From Alitibacter langaaensis DSM 22999 (GTDB lineage: Bacteria; Pseudomonadota; Gammaproteobacteria; Enterobacterales; Pasteurellaceae): a stretch of 64,000 bases of DNA. Made by a program: the position numbers and the translations under genes. Below are positions 3,439 to 62,380 of the stretch, one piece after another. Location of the stretch: NCBI RefSeq assembly GCF_003096995.1, contig NZ_QENU01000004.1, forward strand, positions 1 through 64,000, given 5' to 3'. Below the pieces are notes generated by a model. The model had not been told where the DNA came from and made no database searches. It saw only the letters and a program-made list of their open reading frames with translations. Each line of letters opens with the position of its first letter. The first letter of the stretch is position 1.

Positions 3439-3464
3439 TTTTATGCCTTATTTTGAAAAGTCAA

Positions 3465-4886: not shown

Positions 4887-5945
4887 TTATGCTTTTAATG
4901 ATTGCATATCAATAACAAAGCGATATTTTACATCTGATTTAAGCATACGCTCATAGGCGTGGTTAATATCTTGAATATTGATCATTTCAACATCTGGCAC
5001 GATATTATGTTTACCACAGAAATCTAACATTTCTTGGGTTTCTTTGATTCCCCCAATATTTGAACCCGCAATTGAACGTCTGCCTAAAACAAGAGGAACC
5101 GTGGTAATACTTGGTTCAAGATCACCAATTAACCCCACAAGCACAAGCGTACCGCTGATTGCTAAGGTTGGTACATATGGTTTGAGATCGTGGGTATAAG
5201 GTACGGTGTCGATGATTAAATCAAAAGTATTTGCCACTGATGCCATTTGTTTTTCATCGGTTGAAATCACTACACGGCTAGCACCTAAGCGGAGTGCATC
5301 TTGTTCTTTGCCCGCTGAACGCGTGAAAAGTGTTACCTCTGCCCCTAACGCTACGGCAAGTTTGATCGCCATATGGCCTAATCCACCTAAACCAATAACG
5401 GCAACTTTTGAACCTTTGCCAATGTTCCAATGGTGTAATGGAGACCAAGTCGTAATACCTGCACAAAGTAATGGTGCAACCGCTTTTGTATCAAGATTTT
5501 CTGGCACGCTCAAAACAAAGCTTTCGGTAACCACAATTTTTTCGCTATAGCCGCCGAAAGTAGGTGTATTATCGCCATAACGGTCGGTATCACAATAAGT
5601 AAGTACTGCACCGTGATCACAGTATTGTTCTAACCCTTGTTCACAAGGATGGCAATGACGGCAACTATCGACAAGACAGCCAACCCCGACTAAATCGCCC
5701 ACTTTGAATTTGGTGACTTTATCACCAACACGGCTTACTCTGCCGACAATTTCGTGGCCTGGCACCACAGGGTAAATTGATGATTTCCAATCGTTACGAG
5801 CTTGGTGCAAATCTGAGTGGCATACACCACAATAGAGAATATCAATTTCCACATCATCTACACGTATATCACGGCGTTCAAAAGTATATGGAACAAGAGG
5901 CGATTTTGGATCTAAGGCGGCAAAGCCTTTTACTTTAAATGTCAT
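4887..5945 (-). CDS. Zinc-dependent NAD(P) alcohol dehydrogenase, YahK/CAD-like
   Basis: 352-residue medium-chain dehydrogenase that oxidises alcohols or reduces aldehydes with NADP(H). Visible features: catalytic zinc ligands C42 (CGVCHSD), H64 (GHE) and C161 (CAGITTW); structural zinc cysteines near 95, 98, 101 and 109; nucleotide loop GLGGLGH near 185. It matches the cinnamyl-alcohol-dehydrogenase-like aldehyde reductases (E. coli YahK). It appears to be a single-gene unit, with the restriction island abutting its 3' side. The start is preceded by AAAGGAAAATTT. The physiological substrate cannot be read from the sequence. Confidence 0.88.
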   Translation of the reverse strand: MTFKVKGFAALDPKSPLVPYTFERRDIRVDDVEIDILYCGVCHSDLHQARNDWKSSIYPVVPGHEIVGRVSRVGDKVTKFKVGDLVGVGCLVDSCRHCHPCEQGLEQYCDHGAVLTYCDTDRYGDNTPTFGGYSEKIVVTESFVLSVPENLDTKAVAPLLCAGITTWSPLHHWNIGKGSKVAVIGLGGLGHMAIKLAVALGAEVTLFTRSAGKEQDALRLGASRVVISTDEKQMASVANTFDLIIDTVPYTHDLKPYVPTLAISGTLVLVGLIGDLEPSITTVPLVLGRRSIAGSNIGGIKETQEMLDFCGKHNIVPDVEMINIQDINHAYERMLKSDVKYRFVIDMQSLKA

Positions 5946-6063
5946 AAATTTTCCTTTTTGGATATGTGAAAAGTGCGGTCAATTTTGCAAGAGAATTTGT
6001 AAAATTGGCGTTATCGAAGTCGTAGAAGAACAGGCTTGAACGGACAGATCACGATAAATCAAT

Positions 6064-6101
6064 GTTTCCTTTTTTGTGTATCAACACCCTAAAAAGGAAA
6101 C
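6064..6101. other. Perfect 11-bp inverted repeat in the gap upstream of the alcohol dehydrogenase
   Basis: GTTTCCTTTTT (6064-6074) pairs with AAAAAGGAAAC (6091-6101); inside the loop GTGT can pair with ACAC. It lies about 120 bases upstream of the dehydrogenase start in a stretch with no credible gene. It could be a hairpin in a leader or a remnant of a small element. An uptake core AAGTGCGGT is nearby at about 5970. Confidence 0.4.
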
Positions 6102-6226
6102 CACACCGCTTTATTTTAATCCTCTTATGATTAAATACAAGATAGATTGCAAATCTTATTTTCCTACACAATTCCTTCTACACGAGGGGCAGAATGATGA
6201 ATTGCCAATATTTCTCGCCAATAGGA

Positions 6227-6694
6227 TTAGTTCGCATTATTTGCTTTTAACGCCGTTTTATTGCTGATATAAATAAAATATAAGGCAATGGCTAAAGATA
6301 CGGCTGCCATAAGGCGAGTTGGCGAGAAAGAGAGCGATTGATTGCCAAATAAACCAAAATTATCAATCAGTAAACTCATTAAAATTTGCCCAAAAATCAC
6401 TGCCACTGTCCCCGTGGTTGTGCCGATTCGTTTCACCGCCAGCACCATCGCCAACAGATACGGCACGCCGAAAAACGCCCCCATTAGCTGCCATTTAGGC
6501 ACATTCATCAAGCCCATCTCACGGCTATGTTCAAAAAAGATAATGGAAAGCCCCGTAAGCAGTGTGCCTAAAAAGAAGGTTAAAAACGCAGTATAAAAAA
6601 CGCCTACCTGACTGCCTAATTTACCATTTACCGCCGATTGCACGCTAAGCATCGCACCGCCTAGCACCGCTAAAATTACCATTAACCAAGTCAT
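6227..6694 (-). CDS. DMT superfamily membrane protein, YdcZ/DUF606 type (second of pair)
   Basis: 155 residues with about five hydrophobic helices: an N-terminal segment MVILAVLGGAMLSVQSAVNG, a central GVFYTAFLTFFLGTLL, then two more, ending in ALYFIYISN. This is the usual size and pattern of YdcZ (DUF606) proteins, half-size drug/metabolite-type transporters often encoded as tandem pairs. A good AAGGAG lies 7 bases before the ATG. It follows the related gene at 6705-7136 by 10 bases, so the two probably form a heterodimer. Substrate unknown. Confidence 0.8.
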   Translation of the reverse strand: MTWLMVILAVLGGAMLSVQSAVNGKLGSQVGVFYTAFLTFFLGTLLTGLSIIFFEHSREMGLMNVPKWQLMGAFFGVPYLLAMVLAVKRIGTTTGTVAVIFGQILMSLLIDNFGLFGNQSLSFSPTRLMAAVSLAIALYFIYISNKTALKANNAN

Positions 6695-6704
6695 TTTATT
6701 CTCC

Positions 6705-7136
6705 TTAAATAATCATCAACATTAACGCGATAATAATAAAAAATAACGCGACAACTCTTTTCTTATCCACCTGCAAACGCGGCATACCAAACCAACCAAA
6801 ATGATCGATTAAAAGGCTTTTTGCCACCTGCCCGAACAGCACGCCGATCATCGCCATTGCGATACCAATTTTTGGGGTGATTAATGCCAAAATCACCACA
6901 TACATCGGCCCTAAAATACCGCCCGTAAGCGTCCAATTAGGCTGCGAAAGCAAAGATGGCACTTTGCGTGGTGCAAAAAAGAGCATCAGCAAAAACGTTA
7001 AAACCGTTCCCACAGAAAAAATGCTAAATGTCGCCCAAAGGTTCCCAACATTTTGCGATAATGCAGAGAGCAATCCTGCTTCCACCGATAGCCCCATTCC
7101 CGCCAAAATCACGATAATAATTAACAAAAAGTACAT
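6705..7136 (-). CDS. DMT superfamily membrane protein, YdcZ/DUF606 type (first of pair)
   Basis: 143 residues, very hydrophobic, with four to five predicted helices and the family-type GQVAKSLLIDHFGWFG segment, which matches GQILMSLLIDNFGLFG in its downstream partner. The two are clear paralogues and should form an antiparallel dimeric transporter. GAGG precedes the ATG. The LysR gene at 7236 is transcribed divergently from a 99-base shared region and is the likely regulator. Confidence 0.8.
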   Translation of the reverse strand: MYFLLIIIVILAGMGLSVEAGLLSALSQNVGNLWATFSIFSVGTVLTFLLMLFFAPRKVPSLLSQPNWTLTGGILGPMYVVILALITPKIGIAMAMIGVLFGQVAKSLLIDHFGWFGMPRLQVDKKRVVALFFIIIALMLMII

Positions 7137-7235
7137 ATTTACCTCTCAATATTCATTAGATGCCGCTATTTTAAGGTGTTCTTCTTTGCTTAAAAAGCGT
7201 ATAATCCTCAAAACACTTTTGCAAAATTCGCACAA

Positions 7236-8162
7236 ATGAACTCATCTATCAACCTTAATCAAATTAATATCAAGGCGTTGCGTTATTACGTGGACGTTTG
7301 CCATCAAAAAAGTTTTTCTGTTATAGCACGCAAAGAAAATGTTTCTGTTTCCGTGATTTCTCGCACTATTTCGCAATTGGAAGATGTGCTGGGTATCTCG
7401 CTACTTTATCGCAACACTCGCTCGGTGCTGCCTACCGAAGCTGGCGTGATTTTTCTGCAAACGGCACAAAAAATTTTAGAAATGTTGGATCGCTCATTAC
7501 AAGAGCTACACAACAACACAGAAGAAGTGCAAGGCTTGGTGCGAATCAACGCACCGCTGAGTTTTACCAGACACCATATAATGCCTTATCTTGCGGAATT
7601 AAAACTAAAATACCCCAAATTACAATTAGCATTAACCCAATCAGATACTTATATCGACCCGCATCAACAAGGCACTGATTTGATTTTCCGCATTGGCTCT
7701 TTAACTGATTCCACACTGCGTGCGAGGATACTAAGTGTGGTCAATTATGCGTTATTTTCCTCGCCCGATTATTTACGCACACACGGAACGCCCGTTGATT
7801 TAGATGATTTAAAAAGCCACGAACGCATTTTATTTAAAGGGCATTTAGGGGTTGAGACTTGGTTTGTACAGCAAGATGACAATTTACAACGCATTGATTT
7901 GCCTGTTTCTTTTACCGTGAATGATGGCGACAGCTTATTAGCGGCTGCAGAATCGAGTATGGGGATTGCGATGCTTCCCGACTGGTTGGCTTGTCAATCG
8001 GTGAAAAATGGCAAATTAATTCCGATTATGACAGATCACAAATGGTGCATTAGAGCAAAGCCCATTCATATTGCGATGATTTACCCCAATGTGCAGAATT
8101 TGCCTTGTAATGTGCGTGCCGTAATGGATTATTTTATTGAAAAATATCAAATTGGATGGTGA
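7236..8162 (+). CDS. LysR family transcriptional regulator
   Basis: 308 residues. The N-terminal winged helix-turn-helix (about 10-70) has the LysR pattern ALRYYVDVCHQKSFSVIARK, then SVSVISRTISQLEDVLGISL. The effector domain covers about 95-300. Divergence from the YdcZ-type transporter pair makes those genes the likely target. A TATAAT at 7200-7205 may be its -10 box; no strong Shine-Dalgarno is seen. The inducer is unknown. Confidence 0.85.
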   Translation: MNSSINLNQINIKALRYYVDVCHQKSFSVIARKENVSVSVISRTISQLEDVLGISLLYRNTRSVLPTEAGVIFLQTAQKILEMLDRSLQELHNNTEEVQGLVRINAPLSFTRHHIMPYLAELKLKYPKLQLALTQSDTYIDPHQQGTDLIFRIGSLTDSTLRARILSVVNYALFSSPDYLRTHGTPVDLDDLKSHERILFKGHLGVETWFVQQDDNLQRIDLPVSFTVNDGDSLLAAAESSMGIAMLPDWLACQSVKNGKLIPIMTDHKWCIRAKPIHIAMIYPNVQNLPCNVRAVMDYFIEKYQIGW

Positions 8163-42203: not shown

Positions 42204-42302
42204 AAAATCATTTAGTCCATTAAGAGAATAGAGATTCCATTATTCGTGGTGTAAATCGCTTTCAATGGTTTTAATGGAAAAAGTGGTTTCGGTTAATTTT
42301 AA

Positions 42303-42331
42303 GGCTTTGTGTATTTGCTACCGCAATACCG
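42303..42331. repeat. Degenerate copy of the transposon right end, outside the left end
   Basis: GGCTTTGTGTATTTGCTACC and the following GCAATACCG resemble the right terminus of the transposon (GGTTTTGTGCAACTGCTAC then ATAATACCG at 52450-52476), in the same orientation. About two bases separate it from the target duplication. It looks like the decayed end of an older related element next to which the present one inserted. Confidence 0.65.
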
Positions 42332-42332: not shown

Positions 42333-42340
42333 AAAACTTG
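42333..42340. repeat. Target site duplication, left copy (AAAACTTG)
   Basis: Eight bases identical to 52477-52484, directly abutting the left terminal repeat. Eight-base duplications are normal for IS1595-family elements. Confidence 0.9.
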
Positions 42341-42365
42341 CGGTATTATGTAGCAGTTGCACAAA
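42341..42365. repeat. Left terminal inverted repeat of the 10.1-kb transposon
   Basis: Begins CGGTATTATGTAGCAGTTGC and is the exact reverse complement of 52452-52476 over 25 bases; similarity stops beyond. Confidence 0.95.
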
Positions 42366-42387
42366 GATTTCGTCCGCTTGATAAATT

Positions 42388-42427
42388 AAAATCCTGATAA
42401 ACCATTCTACTTTATCAGGATTTTTTT
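42388..42427 (+). terminator. Terminator-shaped hairpin ending at the start codon of the 42428 gene
   Basis: AAAATCCTGATAAA (42388-42401) and TTTATCAGGATTTT (42411-42424) are perfect 14-base arms; a run of seven T (42421-42427) ends at the ATG. The only Shine-Dalgarno-like AGGA (42417-42420) is inside the stem. It would stop incoming transcription and hide the ribosome site in read-through RNA, a known way for transposons to avoid activation by neighbours. Confidence 0.8.
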
Positions 42428-42973
42428 ATGAGTAAAGCAAAAGAAAAACGCAGAGCCATTTGTTATGACTATCTCAGTGATGAGATAGAAGCCCTTAATC
42501 GTCAAAATGTAGAGCTTAAAGCCCAATTATCTGAAAACAAGAAGATAATCTACGCCCTAAAACAGACCATTGTTTACCTAGAATCAAAACAAAACTTGTT
42601 TGGCTTAGAAAGTCCTACTGTTGATATTTTGTATGATAACATTATGTACCCTTTCAAACGTAATTATATGCAGTTATTAGGGGAAGTGTTAAGGGAAAAT
42701 CAAACACGGTGGCTGACAATAGATTTCATCTTAGATAAGATGTTAGAAAAGGATGGGGTAAAAGTAAGGCTTGATTTTCCGCATCATAGCTTTCACACCC
42801 GTTTATACTATGCTTTACGCAAATTACATCAACGGGGATTAGTTTTTCGTGAAGGGGATGACGATGTGCCAGAATCGGTATTAAATCAACTTGTGGAAGA
42901 TGATTGGAAGAAAACAAACGAGTCTCGTTGGTTAATCAATATGGGGGCATATAAAGTTACGATGGACGCTTAA
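42428..42973 (+). CDS. Unknown IS-associated protein: coiled coil plus winged helix
   Basis: 181 residues, not recognised. Residues 15-58 are a heptad-rich coiled coil (SDEIEALNRQNVELKAQLSE and following). Residues ~75-175 look like a winged helix: FKRNYMQLLGEVLRENQTRW, then SFHTRLYYALRKLHQRGLVF with a basic wing. The protein encoded convergently at 42957-43400 has the same plan, so they may be distant paralogues. Stop codons overlap by 17 bases. Position between a transposon end and a transposase suggests a passenger or accessory gene, perhaps DNA-binding at the ends. Its ribosome site is buried in a hairpin. Confidence 0.6.
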   Translation: MSKAKEKRRAICYDYLSDEIEALNRQNVELKAQLSENKKIIYALKQTIVYLESKQNLFGLESPTVDILYDNIMYPFKRNYMQLLGEVLRENQTRWLTIDFILDKMLEKDGVKVRLDFPHHSFHTRLYYALRKLHQRGLVFREGDDDVPESVLNQLVEDDWKKTNESRWLINMGAYKVTMDA

Positions 42974-43400
42974 ACTTCCAACGGACATGAATTGTTGTGC
43001 GTTGCTCTCGCTCTACCATGCCTTTATCTAACCAATGCTTTAATGCGCCTCGTACCGATACAGTATGCCCTTCCGTGAAAGCCGATTCAGGTTGGTTATC
43101 GGCTTTTAATAGCAGAAAGGTGAGTTCAGTGACACCAAAATAACGATTCGGCTCGGCTTTTAGTATGCTGAGCAAGGTTGTCCGCAGTTTGAGCTTAAAA
43201 CGAGGTTTATGCGTACGATAAGAGTATAATTTTGTATTATGTTCCTCTAAACGGGATTTGGCTTGCATAATGTCAATGGCTTGATGAAGTGTTGCAATCT
43301 TTTCATCCACCAAAATTAAGTGTTGTAATACTTGTTTTCGTTCTCGTTGTAACTCGGTCAGTTTTTTCTCAATTTGGTTTAAATACACTTGTTTTGCCAT
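42957..43400 (-). CDS. Unknown IS-associated protein, translationally coupled to transposase
   Basis: 147 residues. Coiled coil at about 5-52 (LNQIEKKLTELQRERKQVLQ and following) and a winged-helix-like C-terminal part at about 68-145 (RTTLLSILKAEPNRYFGVTE, VSVRGALKHWLDKGMVEREQ), ending with a basic strand. The ATG overlaps the transposase stop as TAATG, so its synthesis is coupled to transposase translation, which points to a role in transposition or its control. Same architecture as the convergent 181-residue protein. Not recognised as a named family. Confidence 0.65.
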   Translation of the reverse strand: MAKQVYLNQIEKKLTELQRERKQVLQHLILVDEKIATLHQAIDIMQAKSRLEEHNTKLYSYRTHKPRFKLKLRTTLLSILKAEPNRYFGVTELTFLLLKADNQPESAFTEGHTVSVRGALKHWLDKGMVEREQRTTIHVRWKFKRPS

Positions 43401-44440
43401 TAGTGAAAAATCACCTCTTGATATGCAGTTTCACGTTGCCAATAATGGTTCCATTCGGTTTCATTGTGTGTGGTAAGGCACTTTTCTAAAATGTCACGGA
43501 ACTGTGAACCATTTGATACCCGACGATTATCTTCACGGTAAGCCACTTCATTTGCATAGTTGAGCAAATAGGCGTTGCTCATCTTATGCATTTGTCCGTA
43601 GTACATCCGTTTGAATCGGGCAAAATAACTTTCCGCCTGATTGTTTGTTACCCCTAAATCACTACTGTATTCTTCTTTGTGATTTACCGTGCATAAATCG
43701 TAAAATGGCATAAGCACATCATACGCATGACTTTCATCGGTATTGATACGTGTGCCTCGCTCAACAAATTTGTCCGCAAAGCGTTTGACTGTCGATTGTG
43801 TTTCCCCGAACGTAACAGCAACCTGCGTACTTTTTGCCCCACGATATAATGGATTTTTCGCTTTTTCTTCTGCGGTATAATGCTCACGAGCAACTAAAAT
43901 ACAACGTTTTTCGGGATTTTGATTTTCCTTTAAACGGTAATCTATACGGTCAATCTTCTTATTTGCTTTGCGAGGTGCGGGGTGAATATATGTGCCATCT
44001 ATATCGACTTCGCCTGAAAAGGTGGCAAATTCTCGTTGCTCAAGTAAGGCTTTACGAATCTTATGTAACAATACATAAGCACTTTTATACTCAATATTTA
44101 AATCCCGTGCCATTTGTAACGCAGAAACCCCTTTAACTGCATTTACAAATAAAGCGATGGCATATAAGTAGGTTTGGATAAGCAGTTTGTGATTTGCAAA
44201 GATTGTGCCAGATGTTACCGAAAAGGTATGCCGACAACTATTCACTTTACAACGCCACTGCTTGCGAGAGGCAATAAAATAGGCTTGATGACGACAACCA
44301 CATTTCGGACAGGTCACGACTGTTTCACTTCCCCATCTTAGCTCGCACAACAATGAAAACGCCTTATCATCAGATAGCGTAGCTATCTTGATAGGCGAAA
44401 GCGTGCGGGCTTTGTTAGAAAGAAGAAAATGTTGTGCCAT
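43400..44440 (-). CDS. IS1595 family transposase (left end of transposon)
   Basis: 346 residues: zinc ribbon CPKCGCRHQAYF with a second Cys pair in WRCKVNSCRHTF (near 44-70), helix-turn-helix region FVNAVKGVSALQMARDLNIEY, and DDE-type core with GEVDIDGTYI (near 142), RINTDESHAY (near 232) and NQAESYFARFKRMY (near 268). Length and motifs fit a complete member of the group related to ISPna2/IS1016. A coupled small gene follows it. The inner end beyond its start (44441-44500) shows no terminal repeat, so this IS copy appears to lack one end. Confidence 0.85.
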   Translation of the reverse strand: MAQHFLLSNKARTLSPIKIATLSDDKAFSLLCELRWGSETVVTCPKCGCRHQAYFIASRKQWRCKVNSCRHTFSVTSGTIFANHKLLIQTYLYAIALFVNAVKGVSALQMARDLNIEYKSAYVLLHKIRKALLEQREFATFSGEVDIDGTYIHPAPRKANKKIDRIDYRLKENQNPEKRCILVAREHYTAEEKAKNPLYRGAKSTQVAVTFGETQSTVKRFADKFVERGTRINTDESHAYDVLMPFYDLCTVNHKEEYSSDLGVTNNQAESYFARFKRMYYGQMHKMSNAYLLNYANEVAYREDNRRVSNGSQFRDILEKCLTTHNETEWNHYWQRETAYQEVIFH

Positions 44441-44499
44441 ATAAATGGTTTTACCTAAAAAGATGTTTCTGATAATATGTATTAAAATTATCCAAATGA

Positions 44500-44796
44500 A
44501 TAATTTTACAAATCAAAGATTTTGCAGAACGCTGTGATATCCCTTATCGCTCAATGTACAACTATGTACGTAGTGAGCGAGAACCTAATTTAGAAGCTCT
44601 TTCTAAAATGAGCAAAACTTTTAATGTCGATCTAAATTGGTTGATTTTGGGAGAAGGAGAAATACTGAAAGGTATATCAAAAGAATCATTTTCAGCCGAA
44701 GAAAATCAACTAATCACTCATTATCGCTTAATGCCTAATCTTGTACAAAAAACAATGAAAACAGCGTTTAAGGCGATTTCAACTGAAAAATTTTAG
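44500..44796 (+). pseudogene. XRE/Cro-type helix-turn-helix regulator, 5'-truncated
   Basis: An open frame beginning right after a TGA (44497-44499) reads LQIKDFAERCDIPYRSMYNY and then VRSEREPNLEALSKMSKTFN and VDLNWLILGEGE, the second half of a phage-repressor-like HTH. The first helix and the original start codon are missing; the first in-frame ATG (44554) falls inside the recognition helix and has no Shine-Dalgarno. The break at about 44500-44510 probably marks where the left IS joined. The gene ends 12 bases before mod, so the intact form may once have regulated the restriction system. Confidence 0.7.
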
Positions 44797-44808
44797 AGAA
44801 TTTTTATT

Positions 44809-45297
44809 ATGAGCCAAAATAAACTTCTATCTACTTTAAAAACTGCTCTGCATTCTTGCAACGGTATTTGGGCTAATGATGACAAAACAGAATTAGCATT
44901 TAATTTACTACTAGATAAATTGGAAAAGCACGATGTAGAGACAATGGCAGCACTGTTAAGTAACTCAGATTTAAAACGCCATTTTTTTACCGAGATCGCT
45001 GGGGCGTTAGTATTTAAGAAAGCTGATTTTCAATTTTTCTTGTCACAAAACAAAATCAGCCACTCATACACCCGATACAAGAACCGTATAGGTTTAACAG
45101 ATGGCAGTCGTTTCTTAAAAGACAGTACTGATATAGTGTTGGATTTTCCGTTTAAAGATTGTGTGTTAAACGGTGGACAGAGTTCAGAAGAAGGTGATGA
45201 GACTTATTTTGAATGCAATAAGGACGCTCAGCTCAGCTCAGCTCAGCTCAGCTCAGCTCAGCTCAGCTCAGCTCAGCTCAGCTCAATTGTACACTAA
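44809..45297 (+). CDS. mod: Type III methyltransferase Mod, 5' part (current reading frame, OFF)
   Basis: Starts ATG with no strong Shine-Dalgarno (GAATTTTTATT upstream), 12 bases after the XRE remnant. Residues 1-140 (MSQNKLLSTLKTALHSCNGI and AGALVFKKADFQFFLSQNKI) match the N-terminus of Haemophilus Mod proteins. The frame then enters 12 GCTCA repeats (AQLSS repeats) and stops at TAA 45295-45297, 162 residues in total. The methylase body lies in another frame. With 10 or 13 repeats (loss of two or gain of one) the frames join into a full Mod of about 720 residues. Confidence 0.85.
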   Translation: MSQNKLLSTLKTALHSCNGIWANDDKTELAFNLLLDKLEKHDVETMAALLSNSDLKRHFFTEIAGALVFKKADFQFFLSQNKISHSYTRYKNRIGLTDGSRFLKDSTDIVLDFPFKDCVLNGGQSSEEGDETYFECNKDAQLSSAQLSSAQLSSAQLSSIVH

Positions 45298-46981
45298 AAA
45301 ATCCCGCAAACGTCAAGAAATTTTCTTTAATCAAGTTTTAGCTTTTGATGAAATCGACCGCTTACTCGATCCGAAAGCCCTTTCAAATTTCTCTCGCTAT
45401 AATCAAAACGGCAAACAGCCTGTTGGTACACTTAAACGCCATTCAGACGGCACACTTGCTGAAAATCTAATTATTAAAGGCAACAATTTAGTGGCTTTGC
45501 ATACTCTTCTTGCTACGAAGTTTAAAGAGAGAGTGAAATTGATTTATATTGATCCGCCCTACAATACAGGCAACGACAGCTTTAAATATAACGATAAATT
45601 TAACCATTCCACTTGGTTGACTTTTATGAAAAATCGGCTAGAAATCGCACGGGAATTGTTGGCTGATGATGGCGTGATTTTTGTGCAATGTGATGATAAT
45701 GAGCAGGCTTACTTAAAGGTTTTGATGGATGAAGTTTTTAGGCGTGAAAATTTTATTAATATTGTAACAGTAAAAACTAAAATCGGGGGAGTATCTGGAA
45801 GTTCGGAAGGAAAAAGTTTAAGAGATGCAACCGAATTTTTACTTTTATCTTCAAAAGATAAATTCAAACTACAACTTAATCCTGTATTTCAAAAAACAGA
45901 AATTAGTGAATATGTAGAAGATTATAAAAGCACAGGCAAAAGCTGGAAATATACACAAGTATTAGTTGAACTAGGGGAAAAATTTTTATTAGAAGAACAA
46001 GATGATTTTAAATATTATCATTATCCAAACTCTAAAAGTGTATCAATAGCAAAATATTGTGCTGAAAATAATTTATCTGAAAATGATGTTTATAATAGCA
46101 TTTCCAATAAGGTTTATAGAACAACGAACGCCCAATCTAGTATTAGAACAAAAATAATAGAAGATTTAAAAGACATTAAAGATGGTATAGTCAGTATTGA
46201 ATATACACCAAAGAAAGGAAAGAACAAAGGTCAGGTTACAGAAGTCTTTTATAATGGTTTTAATAAAGATATGTTTATGTTCCTATCTGATATGTTGTTT
46301 TTTGAAAATAAAAAATTTTTCTACCTTCAAAAAATAAATACTCTTTGGGAAGACATCCAATACAACAATTTAAATAAAGAAGGCGACTATATTGATTTTA
46401 CCAATGGCAAAAAGCCAGAACAATTAATAAAACGCATTATTGAACTAGCCACAAATGAAAATGACATCATCCTAGACTTCCATCTTGGTAGCGGGACAAC
46501 CGCTGCTGTAGCACACAAAATGAATCGCCAATATATCGGCATTGAGCAAATGGATTATATTGAAACCCTTGCAGTGGAACGTTTGAAAAAAGTTATTGAT
46601 GGTGAACAGAGTGGTATTTCTAAAGCAGCCAATTGGCAAGGAGGTGGCGAGTTTGTTTATTTTGAACTGGCAGCGTTTAACGAGAAAGCCAAAGATTTAA
46701 TCTTAGCTTGTGAAGATTTTGACAGCTTAAAAACCTTGTTTAACGAGCTTTGCAGTCGCTATTTTTTAAAATATACATTAAGCATCAAAGAATTTGCCGA
46801 CATTATGCAAGAAGCGGAGTTTCAAGCCTTATCGCTTGATGAACAAAAACAGATGATGTTAGAAATGTTGGATTTAAACCAACTTTATGTAAATGTTAGC
46901 GATATGGAAGATAGTCAATTTGATGACGTGTTATCTGACGAAGACAAGAATTTAACCCTGCAGTTTTACGGAGAGCAATAA
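45173..46981 (+). CDS. mod: Type III methyltransferase Mod, main 3' part (out of frame with start)
   Basis: Holds the catalytic body: DPPY motif IV at residues 127-130 of this frame (LIYIDPPYNTGNDSF), a central target-recognition region (about 190-400) and AdoMet motif I DFHLGSGTTAAVAHKMNRQY near 435, the beta-class order. It adds a methyl group to adenine and works with Res. In the sequenced state it is reachable only from a GTG at 45173 without Shine-Dalgarno, so expression is expected to be OFF. The stop overlaps the res ATG by one base. Coordinates give the open frame, not a proven start. Confidence 0.88.
   Translation: MDRVQKKVMRLILNAIRTLSSAQLSSAQLSSAQLSSAQLYTKKSRKRQEIFFNQVLAFDEIDRLLDPKALSNFSRYNQNGKQPVGTLKRHSDGTLAENLIIKGNNLVALHTLLATKFKERVKLIYIDPPYNTGNDSFKYNDKFNHSTWLTFMKNRLEIARELLADDGVIFVQCDDNEQAYLKVLMDEVFRRENFINIVTVKTKIGGVSGSSEGKSLRDATEFLLLSSKDKFKLQLNPVFQKTEISEYVEDYKSTGKSWKYTQVLVELGEKFLLEEQDDFKYYHYPNSKSVSIAKYCAENNLSENDVYNSISNKVYRTTNAQSSIRTKIIEDLKDIKDGIVSIEYTPKKGKNKGQVTEVFYNGFNKDMFMFLSDMLFFENKKFFYLQKINTLWEDIQYNNLNKEGDYIDFTNGKKPEQLIKRIIELATNENDIILDFHLGSGTTAAVAHKMNRQYIGIEQMDYIETLAVERLKKVIDGEQSGISKAANWQGGGEFVYFELAAFNEKAKDLILACEDFDSLKTLFNELCSRYFLKYTLSIKEFADIMQEAEFQALSLDEQKQMMLEMLDLNQLYVNVSDMEDSQFDDVLSDEDKNLTLQFYGEQ
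45226..45285. repeat. 12 perfect copies of GCTCA in mod (phase-variation tract)
   Basis: Sixty bases of uninterrupted pentanucleotide repeat. Five is not a multiple of three, so slippage moves the downstream frame. Frame arithmetic: the mod start is in frame 1, the body in frame 2; joining needs repeat numbers of 10 or 13 (or others differing by 3). Confidence 0.97.
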
Positions 46982-49710
46982 TGGAAAAGACCTTATTTAA
47001 TGTGATTAAAAACGAACGTAAAGCGGTTAAAAAATACAAACCTGAATTATTGGAAATACCTGAATTTGTGTCTAATAACTTAAAATTTAATTTTTTTGAC
47101 TGGCAAAAAGCCGCTCTTGAAAACTTTTTGATTTTTGACCGCACTTCAGAGCTAGACGATTTCCCTGATTTAAAAAATAAGCCAACGCATTTGTTGTTTC
47201 ATATGGCAACAGGTGCAGGTAAAACGATGATGATGGCAGCCTTAATGCTATATTACTATGAAAAAGGCTATCGTCATTTTCTATTTTTTGTGAATCAAAA
47301 TAATATTGTAGATAAAACAGAAAACAATTTTGTGGACTCATCGCACCACAAATTTTTGTTTACACCAAAGATTTTGCAGGGCGACAAAGTCATTCCAATA
47401 AAAAAAGTGGAAACGTTTAGCGAATTTTCAGACGGTATTGAAATTAAATTTACCACCATTCAAAAATTGTATAATGACATTCATATAGAGCGTGAGAACC
47501 AAACCACGTTAGCAGACTTGCATAAGCTTAATATCGTAATGTTAGGTGATGAAGCACACCACTTAAATGCTCAAACCAAAAAAGGCAAACAAAACACGCT
47601 AGATTGGGAAGTGGAATTAAGTGGCAAAGCAAGTTCAGAAGAAATTGAACGTAGAGGTTGGGAACATATGGTATTGGAGTTGCTACTCAATAAAAACGGT
47701 AATACAAGCAAAAATGTGTTACTAGAATTTACTGCAACTTTACCTGAAAATGATGACGTAGCGAAAAAATATGCCGACAAAATTATCGCTAAATTTACTT
47801 TAAAAGAATTTTTACAAGCAGGCTATACCAAACAAATTAACCTTGTTTCATCAAAATTGGTAAAAAAAGAGCGTGTCTTTCATGCTTTATTATTTGCTTG
47901 GTATCGCTATCAAATTGCGATTCAATACGGTATTGCCAATTTCAAGCCTGTTATGCTATTTCGTAGTAAAACCATTGATGATTCTTGGGCGGATTATCAA
48001 ACATTTTTGCAATGGACGGAAAGTGCAAATGGTCAAGATTTTGATTTTTTAACGACATTAACGCAAAACTTAAATGATGGCGGTACAGAAAACGAACAAG
48101 GTAAAACTCGTACAGAGCAAGTCTTGCTGTTTATGCGTGAGCATAATTTGACGATGTCGCATTTAGCGAATTGGGTAAAGGAAAATTATCAACCACATAA
48201 TGTAATTATTACTAACTCGCAAACTAACAAAAGTAAAAGCGAAAAAACCGATGTGGATACAGAAAAACTTTTAAATAATTTAGAAGCTGCGGATAATCCG
48301 ATTCGAGCGATTTTTACTGTTGAACGTTTAACGGAAGGTTGGGACGTGTTGAATTTGTTTGATATTGTTCGTTTGTATGAAGGACAAAATGGAGGTGGTT
48401 CAAATAAAAAGACAGGTAAAACAGCAGCCGCAACGGTATCAGAAAAGCAGCTAATCGGACGTGGTGTTCGATATTTCCCGTTTGTTTTTGAAGATAAATT
48501 GCCAAATAAACGCAAGTTTGACGGCGTAGAGCACGAACTAAAAATCTTGGAAGAGCTGTTTTATTATACCTTTGATGAGCAATCTCGCTATATTTCCGAA
48601 CTGAAAGCTGAATTGCGAAAAGACGGCTATATCCCTGAAGATACGGATAGAATTAAGGTGCGTTTTGCGATTAAGCCTGAACTGGCACAGAACGAAAGTT
48701 TTAAAAATCTATTAATTTGGTCGAATAAAAAAGTGCCGAATCCAAATGCCAAAGCCAATAATGCAGATAGTTTAAGGGCATTAAATCAACCTTTAAGCAT
48801 TACGGTTCACAGTAATGGATTGTTACAAGAAACACAGTTTAATACTGATGAACTGAATCAGTTAGGTATGGAAAACAATCACTCAAAAACCTTAACTATT
48901 GGCGAGATTGAACAACATATTTTTGATAAAGCTATTCATATTAAAGGTAAAAATAGCAATTCGTTGTTCCATTTTGACCGCTTGCAAGAAAAACTAGACA
49001 TTAAAAGTCGCCGAGAGTTGCAAACGGATTTGATGCAAGATTGGAAAGTGGAGTTTTTGGGATTGGACAACAATCTTACCATCTCGCCATATGAAAAATT
49101 AAAGGCTTGTTTGATAGCACTAGATACTGCAGAACAGCATTTAAAACAAAGTGATACGCCATTTATAGGCACAAAAGAATTTACAGCAAAGACCTTGTGG
49201 GAAATTTTTGGACAACCTAAAGAAAAATGGGTCAGTAAAGATACAGTTAAAACTGAAGTAGCAAAACCTGAATGGTATGCTGTGGATAATTTTGCAGGCA
49301 CGGATTTGGAAGCGAGCCTAGTTCAATTTGTGAAAGAAAGAATGGGAAATTGGGAGAGTAAATACGATTTCCATCTATTACGAAATGAAGAAGTATTAAA
49401 ATTAAGCAATTTTGATAATGGTGAGGGTTTTATGCCTGATTTTATTTTATTACTCAAAGATAAGACAAGAACAACGCTAAACAACATCAATGCTTGTTTG
49501 CATTATCAAATTTTCATTGAACCAAAAGGTGCACATTTAACAGAAAAAGACCAATGGAAAGAGAATTTTCTGCAAGCTATCACGGCAGAGTATGGTAAAG
49601 ATAAACTTATCCAAAAAGATACCCCTTATTATAGGCTAATTGGCTTACCATTTTACACAGAGAAGTCTTCTGATTTTATAGATAAATTTAATGGAATTTA
49701 TGTGGAATAA
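46981..49710 (+). CDS. res: Type III restriction enzyme Res subunit
   Basis: 909 residues: superfamily 2 helicase/ATPase with Walker A GAGKT at 78-82 and DEAH at 190-193, and a C-terminal PD-(D/E)xK nuclease with P819-D820 and E847-P-K849. It translocates on DNA with Mod and cuts 25-27 bases from an unmethylated site in family members. The ATG overlaps the mod stop (TAATG). It needs Mod for site recognition, so it is harmless when Mod is OFF. The only uptake core in the transposon (about 47140) lies in this gene. Confidence 0.93.
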   Translation: MEKTLFNVIKNERKAVKKYKPELLEIPEFVSNNLKFNFFDWQKAALENFLIFDRTSELDDFPDLKNKPTHLLFHMATGAGKTMMMAALMLYYYEKGYRHFLFFVNQNNIVDKTENNFVDSSHHKFLFTPKILQGDKVIPIKKVETFSEFSDGIEIKFTTIQKLYNDIHIERENQTTLADLHKLNIVMLGDEAHHLNAQTKKGKQNTLDWEVELSGKASSEEIERRGWEHMVLELLLNKNGNTSKNVLLEFTATLPENDDVAKKYADKIIAKFTLKEFLQAGYTKQINLVSSKLVKKERVFHALLFAWYRYQIAIQYGIANFKPVMLFRSKTIDDSWADYQTFLQWTESANGQDFDFLTTLTQNLNDGGTENEQGKTRTEQVLLFMREHNLTMSHLANWVKENYQPHNVIITNSQTNKSKSEKTDVDTEKLLNNLEAADNPIRAIFTVERLTEGWDVLNLFDIVRLYEGQNGGGSNKKTGKTAAATVSEKQLIGRGVRYFPFVFEDKLPNKRKFDGVEHELKILEELFYYTFDEQSRYISELKAELRKDGYIPEDTDRIKVRFAIKPELAQNESFKNLLIWSNKKVPNPNAKANNADSLRALNQPLSITVHSNGLLQETQFNTDELNQLGMENNHSKTLTIGEIEQHIFDKAIHIKGKNSNSLFHFDRLQEKLDIKSRRELQTDLMQDWKVEFLGLDNNLTISPYEKLKACLIALDTAEQHLKQSDTPFIGTKEFTAKTLWEIFGQPKEKWVSKDTVKTEVAKPEWYAVDNFAGTDLEASLVQFVKERMGNWESKYDFHLLRNEEVLKLSNFDNGEGFMPDFILLLKDKTRTTLNNINACLHYQIFIEPKGAHLTEKDQWKENFLQAITAEYGKDKLIQKDTPYYRLIGLPFYTEKSSDFIDKFNGIYVE

Positions 49711-49919
49711 ATTATATTAATGCCATTAATCATTGATGAACATCTACAATTTGCCAATGAACCATTTATTTATATTTAGCCTAGCTTCTTTCAAAGAAAC
49801 ACAGCGAACCATATAGGCATAGAACCCTTTTATTAAGGCTCTATGTTGGGTTTGTAACTCATTTATTAAAATCCACGCATTTCTTGTGGCAGTACGGTAT
49901 TCAAGGCAAAACGCTTTGA

Positions 49920-49948
49920 GCCGACCTGAAAATTCAGGTGGGCGATTT
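49920..49948 (+). terminator. Probable terminator downstream of res
   Basis: GCC-G-ACCTGAA pairs with TTCAGGT-G-GGC around a two-base loop, followed by GATTTTTTAT. It is 210 bases beyond the res stop. Confidence 0.65.
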
Positions 49949-50205
49949 TTTATGTCTGGCGTTTAGCTTTGAGTGCCTTGTGCATACAAGAAAGATTTAC
50001 TGCTCATTACTTTCAGACAAATCCAAAAGCCATCCCTTAAAGATATTTTGCTGTTTAAAATAAAAGCAAACAAAACAATAACACTTTTCAATATTCCGCT
50101 ATTTTCCTTTCAAATAAGATTTATATATCAGAAAGTTAGAAAATATTTCCAACATTTAGTTAAAATAACTTGACAAATATTTGAATTTTAGATTGAAAAT
50201 ATCGC

Positions 50206-50234
50206 TTGACAAAGCCCCTAATAATTAATACCAT
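50206..50234 (+). promoter_or_regulatory. Strong sigma70-type promoter for the candidate small RNA
   Basis: TTGACA (50206-50211), exact 17-base spacer, TACCAT (50229-50234). The predicted start is about 50241, just before the hairpin. Confidence 0.6.
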
Positions 50235-50240
50235 TTTTGC

Positions 50241-50328
50241 CACAGAGAATAGTCCCTTCATTATGACTTTTGTTTTTAAGCCTAAAAAGGTTTTTAAATC
50301 AAGAGTGCTAATGAAGGGACTTTTTTTA
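50241..50328 (+). ncRNA. Candidate small structured RNA, about 85-90 nt
   Basis: Perfect 13-base stem AGTCCCTTCATTA (50251-50263) with TAATGAAGGGACT (50309-50321), directly followed by seven T. An inner hairpin AAGCCT-AAAA-AGGTTT (50278-50293) sits in the loop. With the promoter just upstream this is a complete transcription unit for a short RNA; alternatively it is a leader/attenuator for the ORF at 50418. I do not recognise the RNA. It could be a regulator, an antitoxin RNA or an element-specific leader. Confidence 0.55.
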
Positions 50329-50417
50329 TTTTCATCTTTATTGTTTCTTTCGTATAGCACTATAACTCTGAATTAATTTTTTATTTTTAACTAAATAACT
50401 ACACTAAGGAAATAGCA

Positions 50418-50837
50418 ATGAAAGACAGACTAACTTATCTTATAAATAGACGTTATCCTATCTATTACTTTTTGCATGATGAATATGATGAGTATAGTGA
50501 CGATGCAATAAGAATCCTTCATGGTAAAGCACCGTTAAATGGTGCTATTGATCTAAGTTTATTTGAGGATGATGAACTTGACTGGAATGAAGGTGCAAAG
50601 AAAGAAGCGCAAAGGAAACAAGATGAATATGATAGATGGATGAGCTATTATGAGAACAATCCTTTTCATTGTGATGTAAAAGAGATACCCACCTATTCTC
50701 AAGAATACGCTCTTTATCAAGCCCAAAGTCTTATTGAGAGCACGAACGAATATTGCAAATTTTTTTGTGGAGCACCAGAGAGCGCACTTATAACTCGTTT
50801 TCAAATAGAATGTATGAAAGAAGATACGCAACATTAG
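50418..50837 (+). CDS. Acidic hypothetical protein in the restriction transposon
   Basis: 139 residues, unrecognised. AAGGAAATAGCA precedes the ATG, so translation is likely. No signal peptide or membrane helix. The first two thirds are rich in Asp, Glu and Tyr (FLHDEYDEYSDDAIRI, FEDDELDWNEGAKKEAQRKQ, DEYDRWMSYYENN) with a predicted charged helix at about 55-80; the C-terminal third is neutral with three Cys (KFFCGAPES). It lies 90 bases after the small-RNA hairpin, in the same direction. A DNA-mimic or restriction-related role is only a guess. Confidence 0.6.
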   Translation: MKDRLTYLINRRYPIYYFLHDEYDEYSDDAIRILHGKAPLNGAIDLSLFEDDELDWNEGAKKEAQRKQDEYDRWMSYYENNPFHCDVKEIPTYSQEYALYQAQSLIESTNEYCKFFCGAPESALITRFQIECMKEDTQH

Positions 50838-51114
50838 CGTAATCTAAGACAAAATATAATTTAGGATGGATAAAGCTAATAATATATTTTGTCATGACAA
50901 GATGAATACCACTTTAAATTTTATATAAGCTAAAAATAGCTTATCCAATACTTTATCCACTGATGGCAAGTTACTTTAAAGAGCCAATATTACTTGGGTA
51001 TTCAAAGCATTATGCGACACGTTTAAGCCAATTTAGGTTATCTAAATGGGAGGTTTTGAGTGTCTGCGATACGGTTATTTGCTTTGAAACCCTTGTGATA
51101 ACAAGGAACACTTT

Positions 51115-52239
51115 ATGGCTCAACATTACTTACTTTCATCCCAATCCAAACTGCTTTCAATTAAACAAATTTGTCGTTTAACCGACGAACAAGCCTTTCA
51201 GATGTTAAAAGCCCATCGTTGGGGTAATCCTGATGATATCAATGATGTTTGTTGCCCGTTTTGCGGCATACGCCACCATGCTTATTTTCTTCAATCTCGC
51301 AAACGTTGGACGTGTAAACATTGCAAACGAAATTTCTATATTACGACGAACACGGCATTTGCTTTTCATAAATTGCCCTTAGTCGATATTCTGTTAGCTA
51401 TTTCGCTCTTTGTGAATGAAGTCAAAGGGATTTCGGCAATAACAATGAGTCGCCATTTGAATGTGAACTATAAGACCGCTTTTGTCCTCTGCCATAAATT
51501 GCGTGAAGCCCTATTCAAAACTCGTGATTTAACGCCCTTACAAGGTGAAATTCACGAAGATGGGACGTTAATTAACTATAAGTTACGCAAAGCAAATTTT
51601 AAAAAGAATCAACATAAACAACGAGATAAAAAGACAAATTATCCTAAATTGAGACCAACTAAACGTGTCATTATCAGCCTAAATCAACGGGCATCTAATG
51701 ATGAAACATTGTGGGGTTCAAATCGCACCATCGTGGCAATGGACTATACTGAAAATGCCAAAACAATTTTGGCATTAAATCACCAATTCGTGAAACAAGG
51801 TAGCGATATTATGTGTGATGAAAATGGGGCGTATTATGACTTAGATTTTCATTACTCACGTTGGAGTGTTAATCACGATTTATGTTACAGTGCAAAAGGC
51901 ATCAATAACAATCTCGCTGAATCCTTTAATGCCCGCTTTCGAGATTTACATCGTGGTGTACATCACAAATGCGATAACAAATACGCCCTACATTATGCCA
52001 ATCAAGCGGCGTTTATGTCAGACAATCGTCAAAAGTCTAATGGCGAACTGTTTAGTGATATTCTCAAACGTTGCTTATGGGTGTTGCCATTAAGGGAATG
52101 GGTGGGTTATTGGCAAGGAAATCATCGAACGCAAGAGCTTATTGGCATGACCGCATTTAGCCCTGAAGAAATTTCTCAAAGCTATTTTAAAGCATTAAAC
52201 GAACGTATGGCTTACGAAGAACGTTTACTTGCTGCGTAG
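51115..52239 (+). CDS. IS1595 family transposase (right end of transposon)
   Basis: 374 residues with the same plan as the left transposase and the same opening (MAQHYLLS versus MAQHFLLS), but clearly divergent. Zinc ribbon CPFCGIRHHAYF and CKHCKRNF (near 47-75), HTH-like FVNEVKGISAITMSRHLNVNY, core with GEIHEDGTLI (near 143), DIMCDENGAYY (near 233) and NNLAESFNARFRDLH (near 264). The linker at about 150-175 is longer and Lys-rich. AAGGA lies 6-7 bases before the ATG. No inner terminal repeat is seen upstream, so it may depend on the outer ends of the compound element. Confidence 0.85.
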   Translation: MAQHYLLSSQSKLLSIKQICRLTDEQAFQMLKAHRWGNPDDINDVCCPFCGIRHHAYFLQSRKRWTCKHCKRNFYITTNTAFAFHKLPLVDILLAISLFVNEVKGISAITMSRHLNVNYKTAFVLCHKLREALFKTRDLTPLQGEIHEDGTLINYKLRKANFKKNQHKQRDKKTNYPKLRPTKRVIISLNQRASNDETLWGSNRTIVAMDYTENAKTILALNHQFVKQGSDIMCDENGAYYDLDFHYSRWSVNHDLCYSAKGINNNLAESFNARFRDLHRGVHHKCDNKYALHYANQAAFMSDNRQKSNGELFSDILKRCLWVLPLREWVGYWQGNHRTQELIGMTAFSPEEISQSYFKALNERMAYEERLLAA

Positions 52240-52381
52240 TTCATCACGGGCATTTTTCATTAAATAGAACAAAATGCATTTGAAAAGCTTACCTGAAACA
52301 AGGTGGAGCGGGTTGGCTACGCTTGTAATAAGGAAATGTTGTGTAATCAGTGAGAAAATCGGCTAGAATTAGGTCAAAGAA

Positions 52382-52415
52382 ATGCTCTTAACCCTGTTTT
52401 TGACGTTAAGAGCAT
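52382..52415 (-). terminator. Hairpin just inside the right end of the transposon
   Basis: ATGCTCTTAAC (52382-52392) pairs perfectly with GTTAAGAGCAT (52405-52415); read inward (minus strand) it is followed by TTCTTTG. It mirrors the hairpin inside the left end and may shield the element from outside transcription. The T run is poor, so termination is uncertain. Confidence 0.5.
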
Positions 52416-52451
52416 CGTAAATTTTATTGCGGTTAAGATTGCGTTTTGGGT

Positions 52452-52476
52452 TTTGTGCAACTGCTACATAATACCG
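52452..52476. repeat. Right terminal inverted repeat of the 10.1-kb transposon
   Basis: Starts TTTGTGCAACTGCTAC and ends ATAATACCG; exact complement of 42341-42365. Confidence 0.95.
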
Positions 52477-52484
52477 AAAACTTG
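52477..52484. repeat. Target site duplication, right copy (AAAACTTG)
   Basis: Identical to 42333-42340 and directly abutting the right terminal repeat. Confidence 0.9.
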
Positions 52485-52583
52485 TAAAAATTTAACCGCA
52501 CTTTTCTTGTATTCCCTGCTCACTTCTAAAATTTTAATGTTCAGCGTACAATATCAATAAATTGCATTATTAAGGACAGAAAT

Positions 52584-62167: not shown

Positions 62168-62233
62168 AGAGTTTCCTAATAACTAGATAGAAAAGATACG
62201 CAATAAATGGTCGAAAGGAGAATAAAGAAAGGA

Positions 62234-62310
62234 TTAGTTCCCTACGCCAGTATTAGCTGTATCAGGTTTTACGGGTATGTTCTCAGCCGCTTCGCAGCAC
62301 CCCGACTAAC
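62234..62310 (-). promoter_or_regulatory. TPP riboswitch (THI element) controlling thiMDE
   Basis: Read on the minus strand: GGGGTGCTGCGAAGCGGCTG, AGAACATACCCG, then AACCTGATACAG, CTAATACTGGCGTAGGGAAC. The CUGAGA, ACCYG, GAACCUGAU-like and CUGGCGUAGGGAA blocks of the TPP aptamer are all present and in order. It lies about 70 bases before thiM; thiamine pyrophosphate binding is expected to shut off translation or transcription of the operon. Confidence 0.95.
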
Positions 62311-62380
62311 GCTGACTAGTCTAAATTCTTTTTGCCTCAGAAACAAAGAAAAAACAGAAAAATTGTGAACTCTGTCACAA

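What the first reader, a model, noticed from the sequence alone, without database searches (positions are those of the whole stretch)
42333..52484. Intact 10.1-kb IS1595-type transposon that moved a whole type III restriction-modification system
The sequence shows perfect 25-base inverted termini and an exact 8-base duplication (AAAACTTG) around mod-res and companion genes. IS1595-family elements are known to carry passenger genes, but a unit with two different transposases, a phase-variable type III system and a small RNA locus is unusual. The clean duplication implies that the entire unit transposed, perhaps recently, which would explain spread of type III systems to new loci in Haemophilus.
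Basis: partly seen in the sequence, partly recalled or inferred. Interest (0 to 1): 0.82.

Follow-up and report, generated by a model that had tools for sequence, protein, structure and literature searches.

The report
Restriction-gene transposons that insert into terminators
The 10-kb unit is a real transposon and one of a widespread family in Haemophilus relatives: elements with two transposases that mostly carry swappable restriction-modification genes and tend to insert inside the hairpin terminators these bacteria build from their DNA-uptake signals.

Summary
In detail: perfect 25-bp inverted ends (42341-42365, 52452-52476), 8-bp duplication AAAACTTG, two IS1595-type transposases and a type III mod-res operon. 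No Rfam family supports the "small RNA". It is not a one-off. The end (up to 3 mismatches) occurs in 95 of 140 Pasteurellaceae genomes (reversed control 0). Of 39 fetched units with both flanks, 30 have perfect 8-bp duplications (28 distinct). Core layout: ORFA, ORFB (coiled coil plus winged helix), TnpA, cargo, TnpB. Of 32 units with a transposase frame or fragment, 25 carry restriction-modification genes. The window's type III cassette is 94-95% identical (except the middle of mod) to one in a different backbone, while its own backbone holds type II cargo in Actinobacillus indolicus: cassettes are exchanged. Unexpected is the target: 21 of 27 intergenic insertions are centred within 6 nt of the strongest nearby hairpin (3.0 expected), often 18-20 nt from an uptake-signal core facing the element (100 ends against 10 in the opposite orientation). 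Relatives of two other hosts show the uninterrupted hairpin. The window's own empty site was not found; its target is degenerate. Which protein chooses the target is inferred, not shown.

The parts
42277..42300 (+). degenerate left arm of the target terminator (uptake-signal-like sequence with extra bases)
   Evidence: reading: resembles the reverse complement of the right arm; inference
42306..42331 (+). decayed end of a related small (MITE-type) element, one base before the left duplication
   Evidence: besides the unit's own ends the only match with up to 4 edits to the MITE-type end in 64 kb
42333..42340 (+). left copy of the 8-bp target duplication AAAACTTG
42341..42365 (+). left terminal inverted repeat (25 bp)
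42388..42424 (.). subterminal hairpin just before the ORFA start (probable terminator)
   Evidence: hairpins at the corresponding places of both ends in the 20 of 40 units tested
42428..42973 (+). ORFA, 181 aa, coiled coil + winged helix (predicted), paralogue of ORFB
42957..43400 (-). ORFB, 147 aa, coiled coil + winged helix (predicted); marker gene of the family
43400..44440 (-). TnpA, 346 aa IS1595-type DDE transposase
44554..44796 (+). HTH regulator fragment, N-terminal part missing
44809..46981 (+). mod, type III methyltransferase, split into two frames at the repeat tract
45226..45285 (+). GCTCA x12 tract in mod (x11 in the L055 relative)
46981..49710 (+). res, type III restriction subunit, 909 aa
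49713..50046 (+). non-coding stretch at the right edge of the cargo, shared in part with L055, L063 and L071
   Evidence: no Rfam match
50418..50837 (+). 139-aa ORF of the right module, also in L066 and L073
51115..52239 (+). TnpB, 374 aa IS1595-type DDE transposase, separate clade from TnpA
52382..52415 (.). right subterminal hairpin
52452..52476 (-). right terminal inverted repeat (25 bp)
52477..52484 (+). right copy of the 8-bp target duplication AAAACTTG
52495..52503 (-). DNA uptake signal core (ACCGCACTT), 18 nt outside the right end: right arm of the target terminator

Best explanation
The unit is one member of a Pasteurellaceae transposon family. Identical 25-bp ends are acted on by a pair of IS1595-type DDE transposases (TnpA and TnpB), helped by two paralogous coiled-coil/winged-helix proteins (ORFA, ORFB). 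It inserts as a whole with an 8-bp staggered cut, preferentially into the loop of intergenic terminator hairpins that these bacteria build from inverted DNA uptake signal sequences, often 18-20 bp from one arm. Hairpins just inside both ends probably replace the terminator that is split. The middle is a cargo slot between TnpA and TnpB, most often holding restriction-modification genes, exchanged between backbones by recombination; this copy holds a type III system with a repeat-interrupted mod gene. Shown: ends, duplications, empty alleles of two other members, conserved core, conserved acidic residues in both transposases, cassette mosaicism, target register. Inferred: that both transposases are needed, that ORFA/ORFB choose the target or shape the complex, that the end hairpins terminate transcription, that the position beside uptake signals helps spread by natural transformation.
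For: Ends in 95 of 140 genomes at up to 3 mismatches, reversed control 0. Of 40 fetched units 39 have both flanks: 30 with 8/8 duplications (28 distinct), 33 with at least 7/8. 17 of 40 keep two transposases of at least 330 aa plus ORFA and ORFB; 14 of the 16 of these with both flanks have 8/8 duplications. Zinc-ribbon cysteines and D148, D235, E270 invariant in 20 aligned transposases of ten units (that these are the DDE residues is my assignment); TnpA and TnpB two clades at 100/100. Searching named genomes with ORFB alone gave 41 loci; an end lies beyond ORFB on the ORFA side in 39, and the other two run off their contigs (many of these are the same units as mine). Empty alleles: 5 of 9 genomes for L068, 6 of 10 for L079. 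Hairpin at target: mean score 14.3 against 5.5-6.7 at 22 control offsets; strongest hairpin within about 150 nt centred within 6 nt of the duplication centre in 21 of 33 sites (1.4 expected); 21 of 27 intergenic ones against 3.0 expected within the gaps. Uptake-signal cores: 100 outward rows against 10 inward among 210 exact ends; 66 of 100 at 18-20 nt. MITE-type ends 38 against 6 (total of such ends not counted). Mosaicism.
Against: Six of 33 sites lie inside mechanical ORFs of at least 100 aa, and 12 of 33 lack a centred hairpin. About half of the exact ends (110 of 210) have no outward core in the tested spacing. In the window's own genome only the C2 unit sits in a clean uptake-signal hairpin; the window site has one good arm, and by eye the C5 and C21/C8 ends show none. 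The window's empty allele was not found. 7 of 32 transposase-bearing units carry no recognised restriction gene. In the type I-like units only methylase and specificity genes were recognised. TnpA, TnpB, ORFA or ORFB is short, broken or missing in many copies. No experiment shows that both transposases, or ORFA/ORFB, are needed.
Confidence: 0.82

Rival explanations
1. A single ordinary IS1595-type transposon with passenger genes that happened to carry a type III system and inserted at random.
For: DDE_Tnp_IS1595 domains and 8-bp duplication; passenger genes in this IS family are recalled knowledge.
Against: Same two-transposase core with many cargos across the family; target far from random; cargo and backbone with different closest relatives.
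Confidence: 0.06
2. Composite transposon: two independent IS1595 elements happen to flank the cargo.
For: One transposase gene near each end.
Against: No inner ends: in the window's stretch only the two outer 25-mers match at up to 3 mismatches. The two transposases are about 40-44% identical and fall in two separate clades, whereas flanking IS copies should be near-identical. Where ORFB abuts a transposase frame it is the TnpA type in 33 of 41 named loci; in 6 a short or broken frame scores best with the TnpB profile, in 2 none is held.
Confidence: 0.03
3. Insertion is nearly random; copies beside uptake signals or terminators survive best or spread best by natural transformation, so the pattern is selection after insertion.
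For: Uptake cores are rare inside units (19 in 328.5 kb) and commoner in flanks (32 in 79.9 kb), so units in such places could gain uptake. Of 26 intergenic sites with both neighbours known, 15 lie between convergent frames and none between divergent ones.
Against: The spacing (66 of 100 at 18-20 nt) and the excess over a uniform draw inside the same intergenic gaps (21 against 3.0) are hard to get from selection on neighbourhood alone.
Confidence: 0.12
4. The target is any strong DNA hairpin or AT-rich loop; uptake signals are incidental because they form many terminators here.
For: L063 sits in the loop of a terminator hairpin without an uptake core.
Against: L012, L052, L057, L070 and L081 keep a core-like sequence at 18-21 nt on one side without a centred hairpin. 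The present data cannot separate sequence from structure fully.
Confidence: 0.3

Closest known systems
IS1595 family (ISXO2-like; Siguier et al. 2009, seen only as a citation) and its Pasteurellaceae members IS1016, ISApl4 (PMC12561309, passages read)
   Same: Transposase zinc-ribbon + DDE domains (domain names from Pfam); 8-bp duplications, A/T-rich targets
   Different: ISApl4 is 712 bp with one 654-bp transposase gene and 14-bp ends GGGGCTGTACTAGA, in genes and non-coding DNA. Here: 25-bp ends CGGTATTATG..., two transposases, ORFA/ORFB, cargo slot, terminator targets
IS elements that use extragenic palindromes (REP) as targets (stated in PMC2817692, passages read; ISPpu10 and Tobes & Pareja 2006 as cited there)
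   Same: Insertion into dispersed extragenic palindromes
   Different: Those are described as ISs and the palindromes are REPs; here large cargo transposons and uptake-signal terminators
Restriction-modification genes on composite transposons or linked to IS (PMC3031569, passages read; Furuta et al. 2010, Rochepeau et al. 1997, as cited there)
   Same: Restriction systems inside transposon-like units
   Different: Those rely on flanking IS copies; here one dedicated transposon family with a common slot
Phase-variable type III mod genes (phasevarions) of Haemophilus and Neisseria (recalled; titles cited in PMC6211672, passages read)
   Same: Type III mod with a simple repeat in the coding frame
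   Different: The repeat is GCTCA and the operon sits in a mobile unit; a regulon effect is untested
Tn7 (recalled)
   Same: Analogy only: several proteins, insertion at a safe place at fixed distance from a recognised sequence
   Different: No TnsA/C/D relatives among the Pfam hits of the window's nine proteins

Membership tests
IS1595 superfamily transposon | Transposase with ISXO2-like DDE domain and IS1595 zinc ribbon | tested here: met
   PF12762 and PF12760 above cut-off in both transposases; acidic residues invariant in 20 sequences
IS1595 superfamily transposon | 8-bp target duplication | tested here: met
   30 of 39 units 8/8; single copy AAAAAATT in five empty alleles of L068
IS1595 superfamily transposon | One transposase gene (usual plan, recalled) | tested here: not met
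   two transposases in separate clades
IS1595 superfamily transposon | End consensus of a named ISfinder subgroup | not testable with these tools
   ISfinder not held; ends differ from ISApl4
Composite transposon | Two complete IS copies, each with its own pair of ends | tested here: not met
   only the two outer ends at up to 3 mismatches in the window's stretch
Type III restriction-modification system | mod (N6/N4 MTase + type III N-terminal domain) followed by res (ResIII) | tested here: met
   PF12564, PF01555, PF04851
Phase-variable mod (phasevarion) | Simple repeat inside mod that changes frame with copy number | tested here: met
   GCTCA x12 here, x11 in L055, frame interrupted at the tract in both
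Phase-variable mod (phasevarion) | Switching alters expression of a regulon | not testable with these tools
   needs methylome and RNA data
Tn7-like transposon | TnsA/TnsB/TnsC set with TnsD/TniQ | tested here: not met
   no such Pfam match among the nine window proteins; core genes of other units were not scanned with Pfam apart from one HTH and one 161-aa ORF of L008

The most novel reading that the evidence does not exclude
A transposon family with a heteromeric two-transposase machine whose paired coiled-coil/winged-helix proteins read uptake-signal terminators and place the element one register away. A swappable defence cassette is thereby parked, harmlessly, between two DNA-uptake signals, and can then travel by natural transformation: a transposon adapted to a competent host family.
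Probability: 0.35. Interest if true: 0.92.

Novelty: new variant of a known kind. Interest (0 to 1): 0.8.

Why it matters
Restriction-modification systems in Haemophilus and its relatives differ from strain to strain; how they move is a long-standing question (recalled). Here is one dedicated vehicle, whose ends occur in 95 of 140 species genomes, with a common slot used by several restriction types. If the target choice is real, a transposon makes use of the host's DNA-uptake signals and avoids harm by splitting terminators it can replace. Every step (two transposases, ORFA/ORFB, target register) can be tested with small plasmids in a laboratory strain. The 25-bp end is also a search key that delimits such cassettes exactly.

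Tried and rejected
Small RNA: Rfam at gathering threshold finds nothing in the unit. Composite transposon: rejected, no inner ends. Plasmid spread: no ORFB match in 72,556 plasmid records; TnpB finds only distant relatives below 60% identity in 170 records. Viral spread: one exact end in the viral collection (L127), not followed. Wider spread: ORFB profile in 369 genomes of the class gave 2 matches, the own genome and one more of its family; a weak match with stop codons in Psittacicella (L125). Empty site of the window unit: not found. Orientation of the element relative to the nearer hairpin arm: no link seen by eye; not pursued. Fold searches of ORFB and ORFA gave only generic winged-helix-type matches, none at E <= 0.001. 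Papers: ten searches (capped lists, titles and abstract beginnings seen) showed nothing I recognised as describing this family or IS insertion into uptake-signal terminators; Siguier 2009 and Furuta 2010 are not held, so prior description in subscription journals or ISfinder is possible.

A first fuzzy search for the decayed MITE-type end skipped it for a technical reason and was repeated properly. Counts were rechecked.
Full report
WHAT WAS CLAIMED AND WHAT IS THERE. The ends at 42341-42365 and 52452-52476 are identical over 25 bases, and AAAACTTG flanks them at 42333-42340 and 52477-52484. Inside lie, in order: ORFA (181 aa, plus), ORFB (147 aa, minus), TnpA (346 aa, minus), a helix-turn-helix gene fragment, mod, res, a 139-aa ORF, and TnpB (374 aa, plus). 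Both transposases match PF12760 and PF12762; mod and res match type III families. The mod gene holds GCTCA x12 and is split into two frames there; its close relative in unit L055 holds x11 and is also interrupted. The 'small RNA' has no Rfam match. The HTH gene lacks the N-terminal part that L055 has.

A FAMILY, NOT A CURIOSITY. The window's genome has seven exact copies of the end. A second complete 8.1-kb unit on C2 has duplication AAATTTTT and a methylase that clusters with type IIG proteins of other units. A pair on C21 and C8 has the same outer 8 bases (TTTTTTTA), and its 95 bases inside each contig edge are identical to the C2 unit; its interior is not assembled. A unit on C5 runs off the contig and holds an EcoRV-like endonuclease (PF09233) and a D12 methyltransferase (PF02086). 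In 140 Pasteurellaceae genomes, 95 have the end at up to 3 mismatches (34 of 43 genera; reversed pattern 0), and 75 have it exactly, 210 ends in all. I fetched 40 candidate units: two from the own genome and 38 from places listed, chosen by eye for opposed ends 1.5-14 kb apart. L061 and L062, with one end only, were dropped; genomes G081-G139 were not looked at unit by unit. So this is not a random sample. Thirty-nine have both flanks: 30 have 8/8 duplications (28 distinct), 33 at least 7/8.

CORE. ORFA and ORFB are paralogues: each profile finds both. Thirty-two of 40 units have at least one transposase frame or fragment; 17 have two of at least 330 aa plus ORFA and ORFB. Zinc-ribbon cysteines and D148, D235, E270 are invariant in 20 aligned transposases from ten units (their role as the DDE triad is my assignment). 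TnpA and TnpB split into two clades with 100/100 support, so the pair is old. The sub-branches of the two trees do not agree (for example L056 against L059 and L063), which suggests exchange between halves. ORFB is predicted as a long helix plus a winged helix (mean pLDDT 80.7), ORFA likewise with lower confidence (73.6). Fold searches gave only generic winged-helix-type matches, none at E <= 0.001. A scan of named genomes with ORFB alone, through one peptide pattern, found 41 loci; 37 bear names that I know as Pasteurellaceae. An end lies beyond ORFB on the ORFA side in 39 of 41 and the other two run off the contig (L093, L123); 23 of 41 show both ends. Many of these loci are the same units as mine under their names, for instance L066 is Actinobacillus indolicus 46K2C. 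'Pseudomonas stutzeri NCTC11607' (two loci) and a 'Streptococcus' MAG are probably mislabelled or contaminated; the fourth exception is Psittacicella. In 369 genomes of the class, only the own genome and one family member matched.

CARGO. Of 198 cargo frames of at least 100 aa in 105 clusters, 40 were scanned with PADLOC. Twenty proteins, mostly unassigned cargo, were scanned with Pfam. Carrying labels over to clusters, 25 of 32 transposase-bearing units, and 12 of the 17 intact ones, hold restriction-modification genes of type I-like, II, IIG or III kinds. In the type I-like units (L049, L052, L054, L056, L081) I recognised methylase and specificity genes but no type I restriction subunit. 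Not restriction: YadA-like adhesins in L060, L063 and L065, with a glycosyltransferase-like gene in L060 and L063; a DUF4013 gene in L080 (its cluster also in L082); and in 3.3-kb units without transposase an MbnB/TglH-type RiPP gene with DUF2063 (scanned in L050; same clusters in L051, L053, L078). L050, L051 and L078 are 97-99.7% alike over long stretches yet have different duplications: recent movement of a non-autonomous form.

CASSETTES ARE EXCHANGED. The window unit matches L066 at 95.4% over its left 2.1 kb and 94.4% over its right 2.3 kb, but L066 holds type II genes between. The window's HTH-mod-res cargo matches L055 at 93.7% (unit 2166-3305) and 94.9% (4068-7672). The middle of mod (3306-4067), where type III enzymes usually carry the target-recognition part (recalled), has no match at the threshold used, and no match covers the left module of L055 (at least 150 nt and 80%). 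So transposition moves the unit, and recombination in shared sequence swaps the cargo, perhaps even the recognition part of mod.

TARGET. Flanks of the units showed inverted uptake-signal cores (AAGTGCGGT or ACAAGCGGT dialect, names recalled) around the insertion. Test 1: joining flanks of the 33 units with at least 7/8 duplications, the mean hairpin score at the duplication is 14.3 against 5.5-6.7 at 22 shifted positions; the strongest hairpin within about 150 nt is centred within 6 nt of it in 21 of 33 (1.4 expected). Test 2, restricting to intergenic gaps between mechanical ORFs of at least 100 aa: 27 of 33 are intergenic and 21 of these hit, against 3.0 expected if uniform within each gap; of 26 with both neighbours known, 15 are between convergent frames, 11 co-directional, 0 divergent. 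Test 3, all genomes: of 210 exact ends, 100 are followed outward within 5-30 nt by the core facing the element, in 52 genomes; with the core turned round, 10 in 8 genomes. Five of those 10 also appear in the first list, and 8 of 10 lie at 11-12 nt; in four of these a complete inverted pair follows, so the element lies just outside the hairpin. Spacing of the 100: 36 at 18, 19 at 19, 11 at 20, 15 at 9, 19 elsewhere. In the fetched units, 30 of 39 have an outward core on at least one side, 17 on both, and 2 an inward one. MITE-type ends: 38 outward against 6 inward, 5 of the 6 also in the first list. Rows from related genomes are not independent, so the P values are only a guide. Test 4, empty alleles: for L068, 5 of 9 congeneric genomes read straight through the hairpin, with a few base differences and one copy of AAAAAATT; 4 diverge earlier. 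For L079, 6 of 10 read through an uninterrupted hairpin, the target bases themselves differing; 2 align through without a hairpin, 2 stop or do not reach. Both ends of the 20 units tested carry their own hairpin at about nt 45-99 (scores 11-19.5 against about 7-8 for shuffled sequence). Uptake cores are rare inside units (19 in 328.5 kb) compared with flanks beyond 60 nt (32 in 79.9 kb).

AGAINST. Six of 33 sites are inside open frames and 12 of 33 lack a centred hairpin. The window's own site has only one clear arm (18 nt, right); the left side holds a decayed MITE-type end at 42306-42331 and a degenerate arm, so an earlier insertion probably used the same spot. By eye, C5 and C21/C8 ends show no uptake hairpin. 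L063 has a hairpin without the core, while L012, L052, L057, L070 and L081 have a core-like sequence at 18-21 nt without a centred hairpin: sequence and structure are not separated.

MECHANISM. Most likely: TnpA and TnpB act together on the 25-bp ends; ORFA/ORFB, DNA-binding by predicted fold, help to choose the target or hold the complex; an 8-bp staggered cut in the loop splits the terminator; the subterminal hairpins take over termination. The duplications show the 8-bp cut; the roles of the four proteins and of the hairpins are inference. ISs that use extragenic palindromes as targets are known (PMC2817692, passages read), as are restriction genes on IS-flanked units (PMC3031569, passages read). 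The combination found here did not appear in my ten paper searches.

NOVELTY. The transposase domain is of a known superfamily, so I call it a new variant of a known kind. The two-transposase plan, the accessory pair and the uptake-signal terminator target set it apart from the IS1595-type elements I could read about (ISApl4, PMC12561309; IS1016 in PMC3339403; passages read in both).

Noticed in passing
3125-3434: TTGGCTG repeated about 44 times (98% matches): a very long 7-base tract, perhaps in a phase-variable gene
   Followed up: no
62222-62314 (minus): TPP riboswitch (RF00059, 73.7 bits)
   Followed up: no
42306-42331: Decayed MITE-type end one base from the left duplication: an earlier insertion probably used the same target
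   Followed up: partly
45646-46407 (unit 3306-4067): Middle of mod has no match in the otherwise 94-95% identical L055 cassette: possible swap of the recognition part
   Followed up: no
L116 (9677-base contig of a MAG): The contig begins and ends at the two element ends, as if the element were assembled alone at high depth (many copies, or excised forms)
   Followed up: no
L047, unit positions 323-2251: A RloB-like gene and an AbiLi/AriA-like ATPase gene (PARIS-like pair, name recalled) sit between the end and ORFB, outside the usual cargo slot
   Followed up: no
rows such as G045:C1:3092: A minority of ends lie 11-12 nt outside a complete uptake-signal hairpin instead of in its loop: a possible second register
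   Followed up: no
L050, L051, L053, L078: Similar 3.3-kb units without transposase carrying MbnB/TglH-type RiPP genes, at different sites in four genomes
   Followed up: partly
49713-50046: Non-coding stretch at the right edge of the cargo, shared in part with L055, L063 and L071: possible recombination boundary for cassette exchange
   Followed up: no
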